A DNA stretch of 64,000 nt. Source: Achromobacter sp. AONIH1 (lineage in GTDB: Bacteria > Pseudomonadota > Gammaproteobacteria > Burkholderiales > Burkholderiaceae_B). The notes under the pieces were generated by a model. The model was not told the origin of the DNA. It saw nothing but the letters and a program-made list of their open reading frames with translations, and made no database searches. Shown here piece by piece: positions 22,502-29,423 of this stretch (position 1 is its first letter; each line of letters starts with the position of its first letter). The translations under genes were made by a program, and so were the position numbers. The stretch spans positions 3,534,001 through 3,598,000 of the forward strand of contig NZ_CP026124.1 in the NCBI RefSeq assembly GCF_002902905.1, given 5' to 3'.

Positions 22502-22515
22502 TTGATCCATGTCAA
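22502..22515. promoter_or_regulatory. FNR/ANR-type box upstream of the CcoI-like gene
   Basis: TTGATCCATGTCAA matches the FNR/ANR consensus TTGAT-N4-ATCAA with one mismatch. Its centre (22508.5) is 41.5 bases upstream of the ATG at 22550. A likely -10 box, TAAGAT, lies at 22538-22543. This is the classic class II activator layout, predicting transcription start at or next to the start codon. Confidence 0.75.
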
Positions 22516-22549: not shown

Positions 22550-23518
22550 ATGCGAGCCAAATCGATCTTCGCCGTCCCCGCCGGCCTGTCCGACGTCGAC
22601 CGCCAGCAGCGCCGGCACGCGCTGGTGCGCCTGTCGCTGGCCTGGCTGGCCATGATGCAGGTGATGATGTTTGCCTGGCCCGGCTACCTGCGCCACGACG
22701 GCATCCCCACGGATGCCCTGGAGACGCTGGACTGGGCCATCGTGCTGATGAACTGGGCCAGTTTCGCGCTGACCGTGCCCGTGGTGCTGTACTCGGCATG
22801 GCCGATCTGGCGCCACGCCGGCGACAACCTGCGCCATGGCCGCGCCGGCATGGACGTGCCGGTGGCGCTGGGCATCGTGGCCGCCTTCATTCCCTCGGTG
22901 CACGCGACCTATACCGGACACGGCGAGGTGTATTTCGATTCCGTGACCATGTTCGTGGCCTTCCTGCTGACCGCCCGCTACCTGGAACTGTGCGCGCGCC
23001 AATCCTACGGCGGCTCGGCCGGCGGCCTGCGCCATTCCCGCGTCGAAGCGCGCCGCCTGAGCCTGGGCGCCAGCGCCGACCGGCTGGCCTCGCGCTTCGT
23101 GATGATCCAGGTGCTCCTGGCGCTGGCCGCCGCCGCGGCCTGGGCCTATATCGATCCGGCCCACAGCATTCCGGTGATGGTGGCGCTGCTGGTCATGAGC
23201 TGTCCCTGCGCGATGTCGATGGCCGTGCCCACGGCCATGGCCTCGGCGCACGCCGCGCTGGCGGCGCATCCGTCCATGCCCGACGCGGCCTTGCAGGCGC
23301 TGCTGGACGAGGCGGGCCGCAAGGCGCGCCAGAACTTGCATGGCTCGCTTGTATGGCATCTGCTGATGACGCCGCTGGCGCTGGTCGGCTGGGTCACGCC
23401 CTGGCTGGCGGCCATCACCATGCTGCTGTCCTCGCTGGCGGTGGCCTGGAACTCCTGGCGGCTGTCGCGCCGCGACTGGTCCGGCGCATTGGCCGCCGGC
23501 GCGCCGGAATCCGCATGA
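22550..23518 (+). CDS. membrane-only remnant of a CcoI/FixI-type copper P-type ATPase
   Basis: The 322-residue protein aligns by eye with the membrane part of CcoI/FixI. It has an N-terminal pair of helices, GRAGMDVPVALGIV (98-111), VYFDSVTMFVAFLLTARYLE (127-146), the copper-site motif SCPCAMSMAVPTAMASA (217-233) and the final pair GWVTPWLAAITMLLSSLAVAWN (280-301). The metal-binding head, actuator loop (TGE), phosphorylation motif (DKTGT) and nucleotide domain are all missing. Only ~25 and ~20 residues replace the two catalytic loops. The frame is intact and overlaps ccoS (ATGA). It cannot be an ATPase; it may be a membrane chaperone or regulator. Confidence 0.85.
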   Translation: MRAKSIFAVPAGLSDVDRQQRRHALVRLSLAWLAMMQVMMFAWPGYLRHDGIPTDALETLDWAIVLMNWASFALTVPVVLYSAWPIWRHAGDNLRHGRAGMDVPVALGIVAAFIPSVHATYTGHGEVYFDSVTMFVAFLLTARYLELCARQSYGGSAGGLRHSRVEARRLSLGASADRLASRFVMIQVLLALAAAAAWAYIDPAHSIPVMVALLVMSCPCAMSMAVPTAMASAHAALAAHPSMPDAALQALLDEAGRKARQNLHGSLVWHLLMTPLALVGWVTPWLAAITMLLSSLAVAWNSWRLSRRDWSGALAAGAPESA

Positions 23519-23676
23519 CCATCCTCTACCTGCTGCTGCCCCTGTCGCTGCTGTTCGTGCTGGCGATCGGCGTGTCGCTGTGGTGGGCCGTGTTCAACGG
23601 CCAGTACGACGACACCGACAGCGCCGGCACGGCCATCCTGCGCGACGACGACAGCGGGCCGGGCAGCCGGGGCTAG
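23515..23676 (+). CDS. ccoS: cbb3-type cytochrome oxidase assembly protein CcoS
   Basis: This is a 53-residue single-helix membrane protein (ILYLLLPLSLLFVLAIGVSLWW) followed by FNGQYDD, the typical CcoS signature (WAVxxGQFDD-like). It is needed for cofactor insertion into cbb3 oxidase. Its ATG overlaps the stop of the CcoI-like gene, so the pair is translationally coupled, as ccoI-ccoS normally is. Confidence 0.88.
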   Translation: MTILYLLLPLSLLFVLAIGVSLWWAVFNGQYDDTDSAGTAILRDDDSGPGSRG

Positions 23677-23817: not shown

Positions 23818-23831
23818 TTGATCCACATCAA
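23818..23831. promoter_or_regulatory. FNR/ANR box upstream of ccoN
   Basis: TTGATCCACATCAA is a perfect TTGAT-N4-ATCAA site centred 75 bases before the ccoN start. It indicates low-oxygen induction of ccoNOQP by an FNR/ANR-family regulator. It lies in the 222-base gap after ccoS, which contains no gene that I can see. Confidence 0.88.
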
Positions 23832-23898
23832 CGCGGGTTTACCCCGGCCCCCCAATCATTGAAGCCTGGAACTGTTTGTTTCTTTTAGGGGAAGGGTG

Positions 23899-25383
23899 AT
23901 GAACGATTGCGCCGCAATCGCAAGCAAGGCCGACACCTTCAACTACAAGATCGTGAGGCAATTCGCGCTCATGACGGTAGTGTGGGCAATCGTCGGCATG
24001 GCTGTGGGCGTACTGCTCGCCGCGCAGCTGATTTGGCCTCAGTTGAACTTCGACACCGCCTGGCTGACCTATGGCCGGCTGCGTCCGCTGCACACCAACG
24101 CGGTGATCTTCGCGTTCGGCGGCAGCGCGCTGTTCACCACGTCGTACTACGTGGTCCAGCGCACCTGTCAGACCCGCCTGTTCTGCAGCCCGCTGGCCGC
24201 GTTCACCTTCTGGGGATGGCAGATCGTCATCGTCGCCGCCGCGATCACCCTGCCGCTGGGCTACACCAGCAGCAAGGAATACGCGGAACTCGAATGGCCC
24301 ATCGACATCCTGATCACGCTGGTCTGGGTGGCCTACGCCATCGTGTTCTTCGGCACCATCATCAAGCGCCGCTCCAAGCACATCTACGTGGCCAACTGGT
24401 TCTTCGGCTCGTACATCCTGACCATCGCCATCCTGCACATCTTCAACAACCTTGAAGTGCCGGTGTCGATGTGGAAGTCGTACTCCGCCTACGCCGGGGT
24501 GCAGGACGCCATGGTGCAGTGGTGGTACGGCCATAACGCCGTGGGCTTCTTCCTGACCACCAGCTTCCTGGGCATGATGTACTACTTCGTGCCCAAGCAG
24601 GCCGGCCGTCCGATCTACTCGTACCGCCTGTCCATCGTCCACTTCTGGGCGCTGGCCTTCACGTACATGTGGGCGGGCCCGCACCATCTGCTGTACACCT
24701 CGCTGCCGGACTGGACCCAGTCGCTGGGCATGACCTTCTCGCTGATCCTGCTGGCGCCTTCGTGGGGCGGCATGATCAACGGCATCATGACGCTGCAGGG
24801 CGCCTGGTACAAGCTGCGCACCGATCCGATCCTGAAGTTCATGGTCACGGCGCTGTCGTTCTACGGCATGTCGACCTTCGAAGGCTCGATGATGTCGATC
24901 CGCACGGTCAACGCGTTGTCGCACTACACGGACTGGACCATCGGCCACGTGCACTCCGGCGCGCTGGGCTGGGTCGCCATGATCTCGTTCGGCTCGCTGT
25001 ACTACCTGATCCCGCGCCTCTATGGCCGCGAGAAGATGCACAGCGTCAAGGCCATCGAACTGCACTTCTGGATCGCGACCATCGGCGTGGTGCTGTACAT
25101 CGCCGCCATGTGGATCGCCGGCGTGCAGCAGGGCCTGATGTGGCGCGACACCGCCGCCGACGGCACCCTGGTCTACAGCTTCGTCGAGGAACTGAAGACG
25201 CGCGTTCCGTACTACCTGATTCGTCTGTTGGGCGGCACCCTGTTCCTGTCGGGCGTGTTCGTGATGGCGTGGAACGTCTGGATGACGGTGCGCGGCGCGA
25301 CCGCGGTCAACCCCGCCATTCCCCAGGACGATCCGCAAGCCGCGCGCACGCCGGTCACCGCCGCCGCTCCGGCTACCGTTTGA
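23899..25383 (+). CDS. ccoN: cbb3-type cytochrome c oxidase subunit I
   Basis: The 494-residue catalytic subunit has about 12 membrane helices and the haem/copper histidines of the C-family oxidases ([52 protein letters not shown]). It reduces oxygen to water at high affinity. I chose ATG 23899, preceded by GGGGAAGGGTG; a GTG one codon upstream is in frame. It is the first gene of ccoNOQP. Confidence 0.97.
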
Positions 25384-25393
25384 CGAGGACATC

Positions 25394-26116
25394 ATGGCCA
25401 ACAAGCAACACGGCTTCTTTTCCCACCAGACGCTCGAGAAGAACATCGGCTGGATGATCATCGCCAGCATCCTGGTGGTGTCCTTCGCCGGCCTGGTGCA
25501 GATCATCCCGCTGTTCTTCCAGCACAGCACCACGCAGGCGGCCGAGGGCGTCGAGCCCTACAGCCCCCTGCGCCTGATGGGCCGCGACATCTACATCCGC
25601 GAGGGCTGCGTCGGCTGCCATTCCCAGCAGGTGCGCCTGCTGGCGGCCGAAGTGCAGCGCTACGGTTCGTACTCGCTGGCCTCGGAATCGGTGTTCGACC
25701 ATCCGTTCCTGTGGGGTTCCAAGCGCACGGGTCCCGACCTGGCGCGCCTGGGCGAGCGCTATTCCGACGAGTGGCACCGCATCCACCTGCGCAACCCGCG
25801 CATGGTGGTGCCGGAGTCCAACATGCCGGCCTATCCGTGGCTGGAGAAGACCTCGATCACCGGCCAGAACGTGCAGGACCGCATGCGCGCCCTGCGCCTG
25901 GTGGGCGTGCCGTACAGCGACGAGGAAATCGCCGCCGCGCCCAAGGCCATCGAGGGCAAGACGGAAGAGGACGCGCTGGTGGCCTACCTGCAAGGGCTGG
26001 GCGTGGGCGTGCGCAAGGCGCAGCAGGCCAAGAAGGCCGCCGCCGCCGAGGAAGCCGCCAAGAAGGCCGTCGACGCCGCCAGGCAGCCGGCCGCCCAGCC
26101 GGCCTCGGGAGGCTGA
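25394..26116 (+). CDS. ccoO: cbb3-type cytochrome c oxidase subunit II (mono-haem)
   Basis: The 240-residue protein has one N-terminal membrane anchor (residues ~19-42) and a single haem c site [10 protein letters not shown], with the partner segments [16 protein letters not shown] and NMPAYPWL of CcoO. It passes electrons toward CcoN. The last ~35 residues are an unusual Ala/Lys-rich tail ([15 protein letters not shown]), longer than in many homologues and likely disordered or coiled coil. It starts 10 bases after ccoN. Confidence 0.96.
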
Positions 26117-26118
26117 TC

Positions 26119-26292
26119 ATGGCCTACATCAGCGCAATCGTCACCGCCATCTCGATGGCAACCTTTTTCGGCATCGTCTGGTGGGCCTGCTCGCGCGGCC
26201 GCCAGAGCGCCAACAGCGAATCGGCGATGCTGCCGTTCGCGCTGCCCGATGAATTCGGGCCGGCACAACAAGATGGAGCGAATCGGTCATGA
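26119..26292 (+). CDS. ccoQ: cbb3-type oxidase subunit CcoQ
   Basis: This is a 57-residue protein with one N-terminal helix (ISAIVTAISMATFFGIVWWA) and the tail LPFALPDE typical of CcoQ (FixQ). It stabilises the CcoNOP complex. It lies two bases after ccoO, and its stop overlaps the ccoP start (ATGA). Confidence 0.9.
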   Translation: MAYISAIVTAISMATFFGIVWWACSRGRQSANSESAMLPFALPDEFGPAQQDGANRS

Positions 26293-27239
26293 GCGATTTC
26301 GTCAATGGCTTCTGGGGGTATTTCATCTCCGTCGTCGCCGTGGGCGGCGTGGTCTGGTGCGTGTGGCTGCTGTACACGCAGCGTCGCTGGCTCAGCACCA
26401 AGCCGGCCAACGGCCAGGTCGAGGACACCGGCCATGTCTGGGACGGCGACCTGACCGAGCTGAACAACCCGGTCCCCAGCTGGTGGACCTGGATGTACCT
26501 GCTGGCTTGCGTGTTCGCGCTGGGCTACCTGTTCTTCATGCCGGGCCTGGGCGAATACAAGGGCTCGCTGGGCTACAGCAGCGCCGAGGAAGTGGCGCGC
26601 AACCAGGCCAAGCTGGCCGAGGCGGTGCGCCCCATCTATGCGCGTTTCGAGACCATGACCGTGCCGCAGATCGCCGCCGACCCCGGCGCGCGTGAGATCG
26701 GCCAGCGCCTGTTCCTGAACACCTGCGCACAGTGCCACGGCTCGGACGCCAAGGGCGGCCCCAGCTTCCCCAACCTGGCCGATGGCGACTGGCTGCACGG
26801 CGGCTCTCCCGAAGCCATCATGCAGACCATCACCAAGGGCCGCATCGGCGTGATGCCCCCGTGGAAGGGCGTGATCGATCCCAAGACGGCCGGCGATATC
26901 GCGCAATACGTGCGCTCGCTGTCGGGCCTGACCGCCGATCCGGTGCGCGTGTTCCGCGGCAAGCGCGAGTTCGCCAACTACTGCGTGGCCTGTCACGGTG
27001 TCGACGGCAAGGGCAATCAGTCGCTGGGCGCGCCGAACCTGACGGACGAAGTCTGGCTCTATGGCAGCTCGGAAGCGACCATCGTGCAGACCATCCTGGA
27101 AGGACGCCAGAACCGCATGCCCGCGCATGAGGACGTGCTGACGCCCGACCAGATCAAGATCCTGACGGCCTGGGTGTGGGGCCTGTCCAACAAGCCGGAC
27201 GCCAAGCCGCAGGCGGCCGAGAAGACGGCGGCCCGCTGA
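26289..27239 (+). CDS. ccoP: cbb3-type cytochrome c oxidase subunit III (di-haem)
   Basis: The 316-residue protein has two N-terminal helices, the conserved WDGDLTELNNPVPSWW segment, and two haem c sites, CAQCH and CVACH, each followed by a methionine-containing loop (GVMPPWKG, RMPAHEDV). It accepts electrons from soluble or bc1-linked cytochrome c. It overlaps ccoQ by four bases and is followed by a hairpin. Confidence 0.97.
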   Translation: MSDFVNGFWGYFISVVAVGGVVWCVWLLYTQRRWLSTKPANGQVEDTGHVWDGDLTELNNPVPSWWTWMYLLACVFALGYLFFMPGLGEYKGSLGYSSAEEVARNQAKLAEAVRPIYARFETMTVPQIAADPGAREIGQRLFLNTCAQCHGSDAKGGPSFPNLADGDWLHGGSPEAIMQTITKGRIGVMPPWKGVIDPKTAGDIAQYVRSLSGLTADPVRVFRGKREFANYCVACHGVDGKGNQSLGAPNLTDEVWLYGSSEATIVQTILEGRQNRMPAHEDVLTPDQIKILTAWVWGLSNKPDAKPQAAEKTAAR

Positions 27240-27322: not shown

Positions 27323-27412
27323 ATGAAGATGACCCCCCACGCCGCGCGCGCGTTGTGCGCTTGCTGCCCCCCCGAGGGGGGCGCGTTTCATCTTGGGGCG
27401 GCCCTGCGATGA
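27323..27412 (+). CDS. putative 29-residue leader peptide overlapping ccoG start
   Basis: A short frame (starting MKMTPHAARAL) has its own ribosome-binding site, GGAG six bases before the ATG. It ends in a TGA that overlaps the ATG of ccoG (ATGA). The peptide is encoded almost entirely by repeat copy C, so it is unlikely to have a conserved function as protein. It may deliver ribosomes to ccoG, which has no ribosome-binding site of its own. Inference from layout only. Confidence 0.3.
   Translation: MKMTPHAARALCACCPPEGGAFHLGAALR
27331..27408 (-). repeat. GC-rich dispersed repeat, copy C
   Basis: This has the same architecture as copies A, B and D (C-run, GCGC-rich spacer, core CCCCCCCGAGGGGGGCGCG) in the orientation of copy B. 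The flank is different (TTTCATCTTGGGGCGG). It fills the space between the ccoP hairpin and the ccoG start codon. Confidence 0.55.
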
Positions 27413-28902
27413 AAAACGATGGGTCAACCGCAACCGTCAGCACGCCGCCCGGCGGCGATCCGCCGCCCTGGCGGCCGCATGTGCGGCCGCCGCGTCCCGG
27501 CCAGGAAACGCTGGAACAGGCCCTGGCCGGCGTGCGCAGCAAGATCTACCCGCGATCCGTCAGCGGCCTGTTCGCGCGCTGGCGCATCGCCTTCGTCTTT
27601 CTGACCCAGCTCATCTTCTACGGCCTGCCCTGGCTGCAATGGAATGGCCGCCAGGCCGTGCTGTTCGACCTGGGCGCGCGCAAGTTCTACCTGTTCGGCC
27701 TGGTGCTGTGGCCGCAGGACGTGGTCTACCTGGCGGTGCTGCTGGTGATCTCGGCGCTGGCGCTGTTCCTGTTCACCGCCGTGGCCGGCCGGCTGTTCTG
27801 CGGCTACGCCTGTCCGCAGACCGTCTACACCGAGATCTTCATGTGGATCGAGCGCAAGGTCGAAGGCGACCGCGTGGCCCGCATCCGCCTGGACGAGTCG
27901 CCCTGGTCCTGGCACAAGGCGCGGTTGAAGATCACCAAGCATTTCCTGTGGATCGCGCTGGCCTGGTGGACCGGCTCGACCTTCATCGGCTACTTCGCGC
28001 CCATCCGCGAACTGGGACATGAACTGTTCACCTTGCAGCTTGGTCCCTGGCAGTGGTTCTGGATGGTGTTCTACGGATTCGCCACCTGGGGCAACGCCGG
28101 CTTCATGCGCGAGTCGGTCTGCAAGTACATGTGTCCCTACGCCCGTTTCCAGAGCGTGATGGTCGATCCGGACACCTTCGTGGTCACCTATGACAAGCGT
28201 CGCGGCGATCCGAGAGGCGGTCGCTCGCGCAAGGTCGACCACAAGGCCGCCGGCCTGGGCGACTGCGTCGATTGCAGCCTGTGCGTGCAGGTCTGTCCGA
28301 CCGGCATCGACATCCGCGAAGGGCTGCAATACATGTGCATCGGCTGCGGCGCCTGTATCGACGCCTGCGAGCAGGTGATGGACAAGATGCAGTACGAGCC
28401 GGGCCTGATCCGCTATACGTCCGAGCGCGCCATGCTGGACGGCCTGTCGACCAAGAGCGCCCGCTCGCACCTGCTGCGTCCGCGCGTGCTGGTCTACGGC
28501 ACGCTGATCCTGATCCTGGTCATCGCCTTCATCGCCTCGCTGGCCATGCGCAATCCCCTGCGCGTGGACGTGATCCGCGATCGTGGCGTGCTGGGCCGCG
28601 AAGTGGCCGGCGGACTGATCGAGAACGTGTACCGCCTGCAGATCATCAATACGTCGGACTCGCCGCTGCGCCTGCGTCTGTCGGCCGAGGGCCTGCCCGG
28701 ACTGGCGGTGCTGGCCGGCCAGGAAGCGTCGGACGTGGTGGAGGTCGAGGCCGCCGCCAACAAGCTGGTGCCGATGGTGATCCGCGTACCCGCGGGCGGC
28801 AAGCCCGGCGCGCATCCGATCACCTTGCACGCCCGCGCCCAGGACGGCGAGAATCGCGGCATCGAGACCGACGAACCCGCCAGCTTCTACATTCCCAACT
28901 GA
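27409..28902 (+). CDS. ccoG: cbb3 oxidase accessory protein CcoG (FixG/RdxA)
   Basis: The 497-residue membrane ferredoxin-like protein has an N-terminal membrane part with CGYACPQTVYTE and CKYMCPYARFQSVM, two [4Fe-4S] motifs (CVDCSLCVQVCPTGID, CIGCGACIDACEQVM), and a C-terminal immunoglobulin-like domain. CcoG is a copper reductase that supports cbb3 assembly. The frame is open further upstream through the repeat. I chose ATG 27409 (MKNDGS), which lacks a ribosome-binding site and overlaps the leader ORF stop. Confidence 0.93.
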   Translation: MKNDGSTATVSTPPGGDPPPWRPHVRPPRPGQETLEQALAGVRSKIYPRSVSGLFARWRIAFVFLTQLIFYGLPWLQWNGRQAVLFDLGARKFYLFGLVLWPQDVVYLAVLLVISALALFLFTAVAGRLFCGYACPQTVYTEIFMWIERKVEGDRVARIRLDESPWSWHKARLKITKHFLWIALAWWTGSTFIGYFAPIRELGHELFTLQLGPWQWFWMVFYGFATWGNAGFMRESVCKYMCPYARFQSVMVDPDTFVVTYDKRRGDPRGGRSRKVDHKAAGLGDCVDCSLCVQVCPTGIDIREGLQYMCIGCGACIDACEQVMDKMQYEPGLIRYTSERAMLDGLSTKSARSHLLRPRVLVYGTLILILVIAFIASLAMRNPLRVDVIRDRGVLGREVAGGLIENVYRLQIINTSDSPLRLRLSAEGLPGLAVLAGQEASDVVEVEAAANKLVPMVIRVPAGGKPGAHPITLHARAQDGENRGIETDEPASFYIPN

Positions 28903-28940: not shown

Positions 28941-29144
28941 ATGACTACCGCCACGATCGCCAAGCCCTGGTACCGTGAATTCTGGCCCTGGTTCCTGATG
29001 GCCGGCCCGTTCCTGGCGATGCTGGGCTGCTTCATCACCATGTATTTCGCCTTCACCCAGTTCAGCAACCAGCCCATCCAGGAAGAAGGGCTGGTCAAGC
29101 GCGGGCTGGTCATCGAGCACCAGGGAGCGGGGGCGGCGCGTTAG
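28941..29144 (+). CDS. ccoH: short FixH/CcoH-family membrane protein
   Basis: The 67-residue protein has the N-terminal PWYREFWPWFLMAGPFLAM segment and one membrane helix, as in CcoH/FixH. Usual CcoH proteins are ~150 residues with a periplasmic domain. Here only the helix and a short tail (EEGLVKRGL) remain, a form seen in some betaproteobacteria. It sits after ccoG with an AAAGGAC ribosome-binding site. Confidence 0.75.
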   Translation: MTTATIAKPWYREFWPWFLMAGPFLAMLGCFITMYFAFTQFSNQPIQEEGLVKRGLVIEHQGAGAAR

Positions 29145-29186: not shown

Positions 29187-29423
29187 ATGGGCCTGAGATC
29201 GTTGATGTGGATCCTGTGGCCGTCGTTCCTGGCGGCGGCAGCCTGTAGCGCGCTGATCTTCGCGCTGATCGACCCGCTGGACGTGGCCATATTCGGGCAC
29301 GTGCCCACCGGGCGCACCGGCTTCTACACCGTGTCCTTCTTCGTGCTGTGGGTGATGGCCGGGCTGTCCAGCGCGCTCACGGCCTATCTGATGCCCAAGC
29401 CCAGGGAAGACGACGAGCTGTAA
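29187..29423 (+). CDS. small two-helix membrane protein after ccoH
   Basis: This is a 78-residue protein with two hydrophobic segments (residues ~8-28 and 45-68) separated by PLDVAIFGHVPTGRTG. An AGGAGGGGC ribosome-binding site precedes it. I do not recognise a named family. Its place at the end of the cbb3 accessory genes suggests a role in the membrane under low oxygen, but the sequence shows no motif that proves one. Confidence 0.7.
   Translation: MGLRSLMWILWPSFLAAAACSALIFALIDPLDVAIFGHVPTGRTGFYTVSFFVLWVMAGLSSALTAYLMPKPREDDEL

What the first reader, a model, noticed from the sequence alone, without database searches (positions are those of the whole stretch)
22550..23518. CcoI/FixI copper ATPase reduced to its membrane core
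The protein keeps the transmembrane helices and the SCPC copper motif. It lacks the metal-binding head, the TGE actuator loop, the DKTGT phosphorylation site and the whole nucleotide domain. The gaps lie exactly at the two cytosolic loops, the frame is intact, and the ATGA link to ccoS is retained. This looks like a maintained non-ATPase derivative, possibly a copper-site chaperone or partner of another ATPase, rather than random decay.
Basis: partly seen in the sequence, partly recalled or inferred. Interest (0 to 1): 0.75.

Follow-up and report, generated by a model that had tools for sequence, protein, structure and literature searches.

The report
ATPase-free copper pump core kept
A copper pump needed to build a low-oxygen respiratory enzyme has, in one family of bacteria, lost its whole engine but kept its copper-holding membrane core, which probably now works as a copper hand-over protein rather than a pump.

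Summary
The 322-aa ORF at 22550-23518 is the eight-helix membrane domain of a CcoI/FixI copper ATPase. The N-terminal metal-binding domains, the A-domain and the P/N-domains are missing. Close relatives have the same short gene: 84 of 121 genomes drawn from this bacterial family carry it intact (frames 312-386 aa). It goes with the cbb3 oxidase: 82 of the 89 genomes with ccoN have it, six others have full-length ccoI, one breaks off at a contig end. It forms one group on the tree (SH-aLRT 100), is under purifying selection (median dN/dS 0.04-0.14), has an FNR-type box (68 of 79 loci) and overlaps ccoS. CPC and the M6 Met-Ser stay invariant, while the Asn of the canonical Asn-Met-Ser copper site is His in 83 of 83 short proteins read, against Asn in 27 of 27 full-length ones read. 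This genome's only other copper-type ATPase is one CopA. I read it as a maintained, non-catalytic copper-site protein for cbb3 assembly. That ATP-free role is inferred, not shown. Nine paper searches gave no paper that I could see describing it. New variant of a known kind.

The parts
22502..22515 (+). FNR/ANR-type box TTGATCCATGTCAA upstream of the short ccoI
   Evidence: 3 matches in the window, i.e. 2 sites; 0.04 expected; box present upstream in 68 of 79 short-ccoI loci. That this motif is an FNR/ANR box is recalled.
22550..23518 (+). short ccoI: membrane core (eight TM helices, MA, MB, M1-M6) of a CcoI/FixI Cu(I) P-type ATPase, 322 aa, no ATPase domains
   Evidence: helix names recalled
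23003..23044 (+). about residues 152-165: short linker where the A-domain (TGE) stands in full-length CcoI
   Evidence: alignment; model helices 129-153 and 159-201
23201..23209 (+). C218-P219-C220, copper motif of M4, invariant
23261..23305 (+). about residues 238-252: short linker where the P- and N-domains (DKTGT) stand in full-length CcoI
   Evidence: alignment; model helices 220-239 and 245-279
23357..23359 (+). H270 in M5: His in place of the Asn of the canonical Asn-Met-Ser copper site
   Evidence: 79 of 79 short rows His, 26 of 26 full-length rows Asn; 4 further short loci also His, 1 further full-length Asn (L112)
23420..23434 (+). M291..S294-S295 in M6: Met-Ser part of the copper site, retained
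   Evidence: M291 and S294 79 of 79; position 295 Ser 77, Thr 2
23515..23676 (+). ccoS, overlapping the short ccoI by ATGA
23818..23831 (.). second FNR-type box TTGATCCACATCAA, upstream of ccoN
23896..25383 (+). ccoN, catalytic subunit of the cbb3 oxidase
   Evidence: COX1; TIGR00780 2.7e-229
25394..26116 (+). ccoO
   Evidence: FixO
26289..27239 (+). ccoP
   Evidence: FixP_N, Cytochrome_CBB3
27409..28902 (+). ccoG
   Evidence: Fer4_18, FixG_C
28941..29144 (+). ccoH (FixH), 67 aa
   Evidence: PF05751, 23.2 bits against a cut-off of 23

Best explanation
The gene encodes a maintained, non-catalytic descendant of CcoI. SHOWN: it is a membrane core with no phosphorylation, actuator, nucleotide or soluble metal-binding domain, found as one group across one family of betaproteobacteria together with the cbb3 oxidase and ccoS. 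It is under purifying selection, and its intramembrane copper motif has been altered in one fixed way (Asn to His). INFERRED: it sits with CcoS at the CcoN assembly site and holds Cu(I) between C218, C220, H270 and M291. It exchanges that copper, without using ATP, with the periplasmic side (SenC/Sco and PCuAC chaperones) or with CcoN itself, and so serves as a membrane-embedded copper relay for the CuB site. The ATP-driven export step would be done by the general pump CopA.
Against: No copper binding, transfer or partner has been measured. Rhodobacter CcoI does transport Cu with ATP, and extra CopA does not replace it there (PMC8475189), so handing the pump step to CopA is not trivially expected. 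A passive conduit, a CopA partner or a copper-free assembly factor would leave much of the same sequence record. The loss of entry acids is partial and phylogenetically non-independent. The short gene evolves faster than ccoN. Eleven of 79 loci lack the box. AlphaFold gave one chain only, without copper or partners, and no site geometry was measured.
Confidence: 0.5

Rival explanations
1. Passive Cu(I) conduit: the core lets Cu(I) cross the membrane down its gradient through the old pump path, without ATP.
For: All eight helices, the entry Met (M101), CPC, Met-Ser and an exit acid are retained.
Against: Asn to His and extra Met around the site would be expected to bind Cu(I) more tightly, which suits holding more than conduction (inference). 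Two entry-acid positions lose charge in part of the family. An ungated copper pore would be costly (inference).
Confidence: 0.17
2. Partner or targeting subunit of CopA: the core pairs with the full-length pump and directs exported Cu(I) to CcoN.
For: Each of the 84 genomes has a Cu-ATPase match at E 4.3e-100 or better; this genome has one Cu-type ATPase (type judged by eye and by TIGR01511).
Against: CopA is present in nearly all genomes anyway (113 of 121 have a match over the cut-off), so co-occurrence says little. P-type Cu-ATPases are usually thought to work as single chains (recalled). The copper-site changes are not explained by a mere docking role.
Confidence: 0.15
3. Copper-free assembly scaffold for CcoN/CcoS.
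For: ccoS overlap and co-occurrence with ccoN.
Against: CPC, M291 and S294 are invariant in 79 of 79 rows and His is fixed at the third site; a pure scaffold would not need these.
Confidence: 0.08
4. Decaying remnant or assembly error.
For: The ATPase domains are gone. In one Bordetella-type genome (G125) the gene is interrupted by an IS481-type transposase, with ccoN also broken (name of the element and of the genome type recalled).
Against: Intact in 84 of 121 genomes, median dN/dS 0.04 (YN00) or 0.14 (NG86), frequent FNR-type boxes, and kept in a 1.7-Mb genome (G062) next to Taylorella on the tree. G125 shows joint loss with the oxidase, not decay of this gene alone.
Confidence: 0.02

Closest known systems
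CcoI/FixI (CopA2-type P1B Cu-ATPase), e.g. Rhodobacter capsulatus CcoI (PMC8475189)
   Same: Membrane domain, CPC motif, Met-Ser of M6, place next to ccoS and ccoNOQP.
   Different: No N-terminal metal-binding domains, A-, P- or N-domain; Asn to His at the copper site; no residue for the phospho-Asp intermediate.
CtpA of Rubrivivax gelatinosus (seen only as mentions in passages of PMC8267372 and PMC6769254)
   Same: Betaproteobacterial CcoI homologue serving cbb3 assembly.
CopA (CopA1) of the same genome, G000:C1:4638317-4640107
   Same: Same membrane-domain family, CPC.
   Different: Full catalytic domains; far from the cco cluster on the contig.
SenC/Sco1 and PCuAC periplasmic copper chaperones
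   Same: Proposed to work like them: bind and hand over Cu(I) without ATP.
   Different: Soluble or single-anchor periplasmic proteins of unrelated fold (recalled); here the site lies inside a membrane bundle.

Membership tests
CcoI/FixI Cu(I) P1B-type ATPase | Eight-helix membrane domain | tested here: met
CcoI/FixI Cu(I) P1B-type ATPase | CPC motif in M4 (TM-MBS1) | tested here: met
   79 of 79 rows
CcoI/FixI Cu(I) P1B-type ATPase | Asn-Met-Ser site (TM-MBS2) | tested here: not met
   His-Met-Ser: His in 79 of 79 and 4 more
CcoI/FixI Cu(I) P1B-type ATPase | N-terminal metal-binding domains (PF12156, HMA) | tested here: not met
   No match in 4 of 4 short proteins scanned, present in 2 of 2 full-length controls
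CcoI/FixI Cu(I) P1B-type ATPase | Actuator domain with TGE | tested here: not met
   Only PF00122 positions 104-180 match in P0001; aligned gap
CcoI/FixI Cu(I) P1B-type ATPase | DKTGT phosphorylation site and nucleotide domain | tested here: not met
   No DKTGT, no PF00702 match
CcoI/FixI Cu(I) P1B-type ATPase | Location beside ccoS and ccoNOQP | tested here: met
CcoI/FixI Cu(I) P1B-type ATPase | ATP-dependent Cu(I) transport | not testable with these tools
   No catalytic domain; needs biochemistry
P-type ATPase superfamily (NCBIfam TIGR01511 / TIGR01494) | Score over the curated cut-off | tested here: not met
   84.4 bits against 397; 26.7 against 62.3. Pfam PF00122 itself is over its cut-off, 40.1 against 28.1, by its last part only
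Membrane copper chaperone / relay for cbb3 | Binds Cu(I) and passes it to CcoN | not testable with these tools
   Inferred from conserved ligands only

The most novel reading that the evidence does not exclude
A pump has turned into an ATP-free intramembrane copper insertase: an ancestor of this family stripped CcoI of every catalytic domain, rebuilt its copper site as Cys-Cys-His-Met, and now uses the bare membrane core to load CuB of cbb3 oxidase with copper exported by CopA.
Probability: 0.35. Interest if true: 0.85.

Novelty: new variant of a known kind. Interest (0 to 1): 0.66.

Why it matters
CcoI is taken to serve cbb3 oxidase by pumping copper with ATP. Most sampled members of a bacterial family that includes Achromobacter, Bordetella and Taylorella keep only its copper-holding core. 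This natural separation of pump and hand-over would let one test whether CcoI's specific role is transport or delivery. It also warns that the 'P-type ATPase' and 'cation transport ATPase' labels on these genes are misleading, and it offers a small membrane domain for studying copper insertion into CuB.

Tried and rejected
Replacement by another full-length CcoI in this genome: rejected. Five PF00122 places, one being this gene. Seven DKTGT-pattern places: four are in the known P-type ATPases, two in beta-lactamase-like frames, one in a 51-aa run. A split pump with separate soluble domains: no DKTGT outside those four ATPases (same calls).

Independent truncations elsewhere: in a 370-genome sample of the class, this genome alone shows a full-span short match among the rows listed; no other family member appears in the listed part of that draw. 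Seven listed rows with frames under 600 aa were fetched: five gave a frame under my filter, all running off the contig end, four of them with DKTGT; L147 and L151 gave none. Weaker rows were not listed, so rare cases are not excluded.

Reduced CcoH as a linked loss: not supported. CcoH could be read in 2 of 7 newly fetched full-length-CcoI regions, in frames of 102 and 115 aa, and in L112 in a frame of 48 aa: longer or shorter than the 67 aa here, but none near the 150 positions of the Pfam profile.

Natural CcoI-CcoS fusions (P0003, P0004, P0035): looked like frame shifts and were not used.

Rows dropped: of 91 short loci 79 were unique. Four short loci without the exact motif used to find the start were left out of the 79-row counts and of the tree, and read separately. 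The 26 full-length rows hold three same-family ones (L107-L109); L110-L112 were not among them and were looked at (Asn read in L112; the pattern was silent in L110 and L111, so their residue is not known). L110 and L111 are also absent from the CcoN tree. The letters TGE occur in four other short loci (L019, L042, L071, L077), not in an A-domain by length.

Papers: nine searches gave no paper that I could see describing this short CcoI; listings were capped, subscription journals and preprints are not held, and PMC5829832 and PMC6362234, which hold the words CcoI and truncated, were seen as listings only. PMC6769254 and PMC7794356 (term counts and passages) hold no occurrence of CcoI.

Full report

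NOT A LOCAL DELETION. A protein search returned 921 relatives at E up to 1e-3 in a length window (0.55-1.75 times the query) that excludes full-length CcoI. Of the 120 listed, 109 are 295-340 aa, and those with a source name are Achromobacter, Bordetella, Pusillimonas, Parapusillimonas, Paenalcaligenes and similar. In 121 genomes drawn from the same taxonomic family, 84 have a match from model position 8 or before to 305 or after in an open frame of 312-386 aa, 6 have a full-length ccoI instead, 2 have fragments (G125, G097), and 29 have neither. ccoN over the curated cut-off is in 89. Of these 82 have the short gene, 6 the long one, and the last (G138) breaks off at a contig end beside ccoS. 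The two short genes without an intact ccoN hit are a contig end (G130) and a ccoN with a stop (G134). In the class-wide sample of 370 genomes only this genome has a full-span short match among the rows listed. Named assemblies from genome contigs show the same (80 of 175 confirmed loci kept): the short loci bear titles of Alcaligenaceae, of Burkholderiaceae MAGs or of uncultured betaproteobacteria, while the Massilia, Rugamonas, Thiomonas, Deefgea and Halomonas loci have 811-1073-aa frames with DKTGT, many with a ccoS-like ORF behind.

HISTORY. On a tree of the shared core (93 rows, 303 columns, quick method) the short proteins are one side of a branch with SH-aLRT 100. A CcoN tree (86 rows) also puts the CcoN of short-ccoI genomes together (97), with two same-family full-length genomes (G065, G108) next to them (86-90) and two others (G051, G052) among outgroups; G069 and G100 are not in it. 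The simplest reading is one loss of the cytosolic parts in an early ancestor, then joint inheritance with the oxidase. Whether the few full-length cases are later imports or older survivors is open. Long branches (L107, L109) make their places unsure.

SELECTION AND EXPRESSION. Among 13 loci of this genus (the named ones Achromobacter), dN/dS of the short ccoI has median 0.039 by YN00 (51 of 78 pairs usable) and 0.137 by NG86 (78 of 78). ccoN gives 0.015 and 0.060 (55 pairs each). The short gene evolves faster than ccoN but is clearly constrained. An FNR-type box begins 48 bases before the start codon (22502-22515) and another lies before ccoN; the pattern is expected 0.04 times in the window. 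A slightly relaxed box occurs within 250 nt upstream of 68 of 79 unique short-ccoI genes, 66 of them beginning 40-52 nt before the start. Eleven lack it, among them Taylorella, Oligella and Pelistega. The broken gene in G125 carries an IS481-type transposase and its ccoN is broken too (IS name recalled), which fits loss of the whole oxidase.

THE COPPER SITE. In 79 unique short proteins against 26 full-length ones, C218, P219, C220, M101, M291 and S294 are invariant in both. The Asn of the Asn-Met-Ser site, described as conserved and needed for outward transport (PMC8475189, passage), is His in 79 of 79 short and Asn in 26 of 26 long proteins. Four more short loci left out of that alignment also have His, as do all 73 rows of another alignment that partly overlaps, and one more full-length has Asn. 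The preceding Tyr is Trp or Phe in 79 of 79. Met is gained at 222 (56 of 79), 224 (65 of 79) and 273 (60 of 79), against 0, 0 and 1 of 26. Per core, Met rises from 11.1 to 17.0 and His from 3.4 to 6.9. The exit acid (D130) is acidic in 79 of 79. The entry-side E146 and D177 lose the charge in 7 and 24 of 79, against 0 and 3 of 26. These residue roles are matched to Legionella CopA from memory. The pattern looks like a site that still holds copper and faces the periplasm, not like a relic.

WHO PUMPS. This genome has four other P-type ATPases: CopA (770 aa), a ZntA-like (801 aa), a KdpB-like and a further one; no second CcoI (names by eye). It has three Sco/SenC and two PCuAC proteins, one pair 200 bases apart. 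All 84 genomes with the short gene have Sco/SenC and a Cu-ATPase match at E 4.3e-100 or better. 113 of the 121 have one over the cut-off; six of the other eight have no match, one by its E-value is G052, and the eighth is not identified in the listing.

MECHANISM. Rhodobacter CcoI moves Cu(I) with ATP. Its CPC motif is essential for cbb3, whereas the two N-terminal sites each only lower it, and extra CopA does not replace CcoI there (PMC8475189: abstract, the metal-site section and part 1 of the discussion). Campylobacter ccoI and ccoS deletions both abolish the oxidase activity and are partly rescued by copper (PMC8267372, passages). A core that lost the engine but kept CPC, Met-Ser and a place beside ccoS therefore most likely performs the hand-over half of the job: holding Cu(I) and passing it between periplasmic chaperones, CcoS and CcoN, with CopA supplying exported copper. 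Taylorella is reported to have cbb3 as its one terminal oxidase (PMC3250509, passage) and carries the short gene (L068), so a cbb3 system relying on it is presumably functional. Shown: architecture, conservation, co-occurrence, selection, residue swap. Inferred: copper binding, direction, partners.

VERDICT. By sequence it descends from CcoI but fails the defining tests of a P-type ATPase. Nine paper searches gave no paper that I could see describing it.

Noticed in passing
window 28941-29144: ccoH (FixH) is only 67 aa, matching positions 1-36 of 150 of PF05751; similarly short CcoH (57-85 aa from its first motif) follows ccoG in the short-ccoI loci that reach it. Two full-length-CcoI relatives have frames of 102 and 115 aa.
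   Followed up: partly
window 29187-29423: A 78-aa membrane ORF after ccoH has no Pfam family above the cut-off; unknown small protein of the cco cluster.
   Followed up: no
L113 2556-3503 (G125): In a Bordetella-type genome an IS481-type transposase sits inside the short ccoI near the lost A-domain junction, and ccoN is broken as well: the oxidase cluster is decaying together.
   Followed up: partly
G000:C1:2832998 and 2835064 (outside the window): Two ORFs with the same sequence around a DKTGT-like KTG motif, class A beta-lactamase-like by eye, lie in opposite orientation about 2 kb apart.
   Followed up: no
L107 (G065) and L118, L119 (G119, G140), one genus: One genus holds both a full-length ccoI (G065) and short ccoI (G119, G140) in the cco cluster, so a replacement or exchange of the cluster may have happened there.
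   Followed up: partly
G052 (L112): A genome with full-length CcoI whose best Cu-ATPase match is weak (E 1.8e-55): it may lack CopA, the mirror image of the short-ccoI genomes.
   Followed up: no
P0003, P0004, P0035: Database proteins in which the short CcoI runs on into CcoS; these look like frame shifts, natural fusion not excluded.
   Followed up: partly
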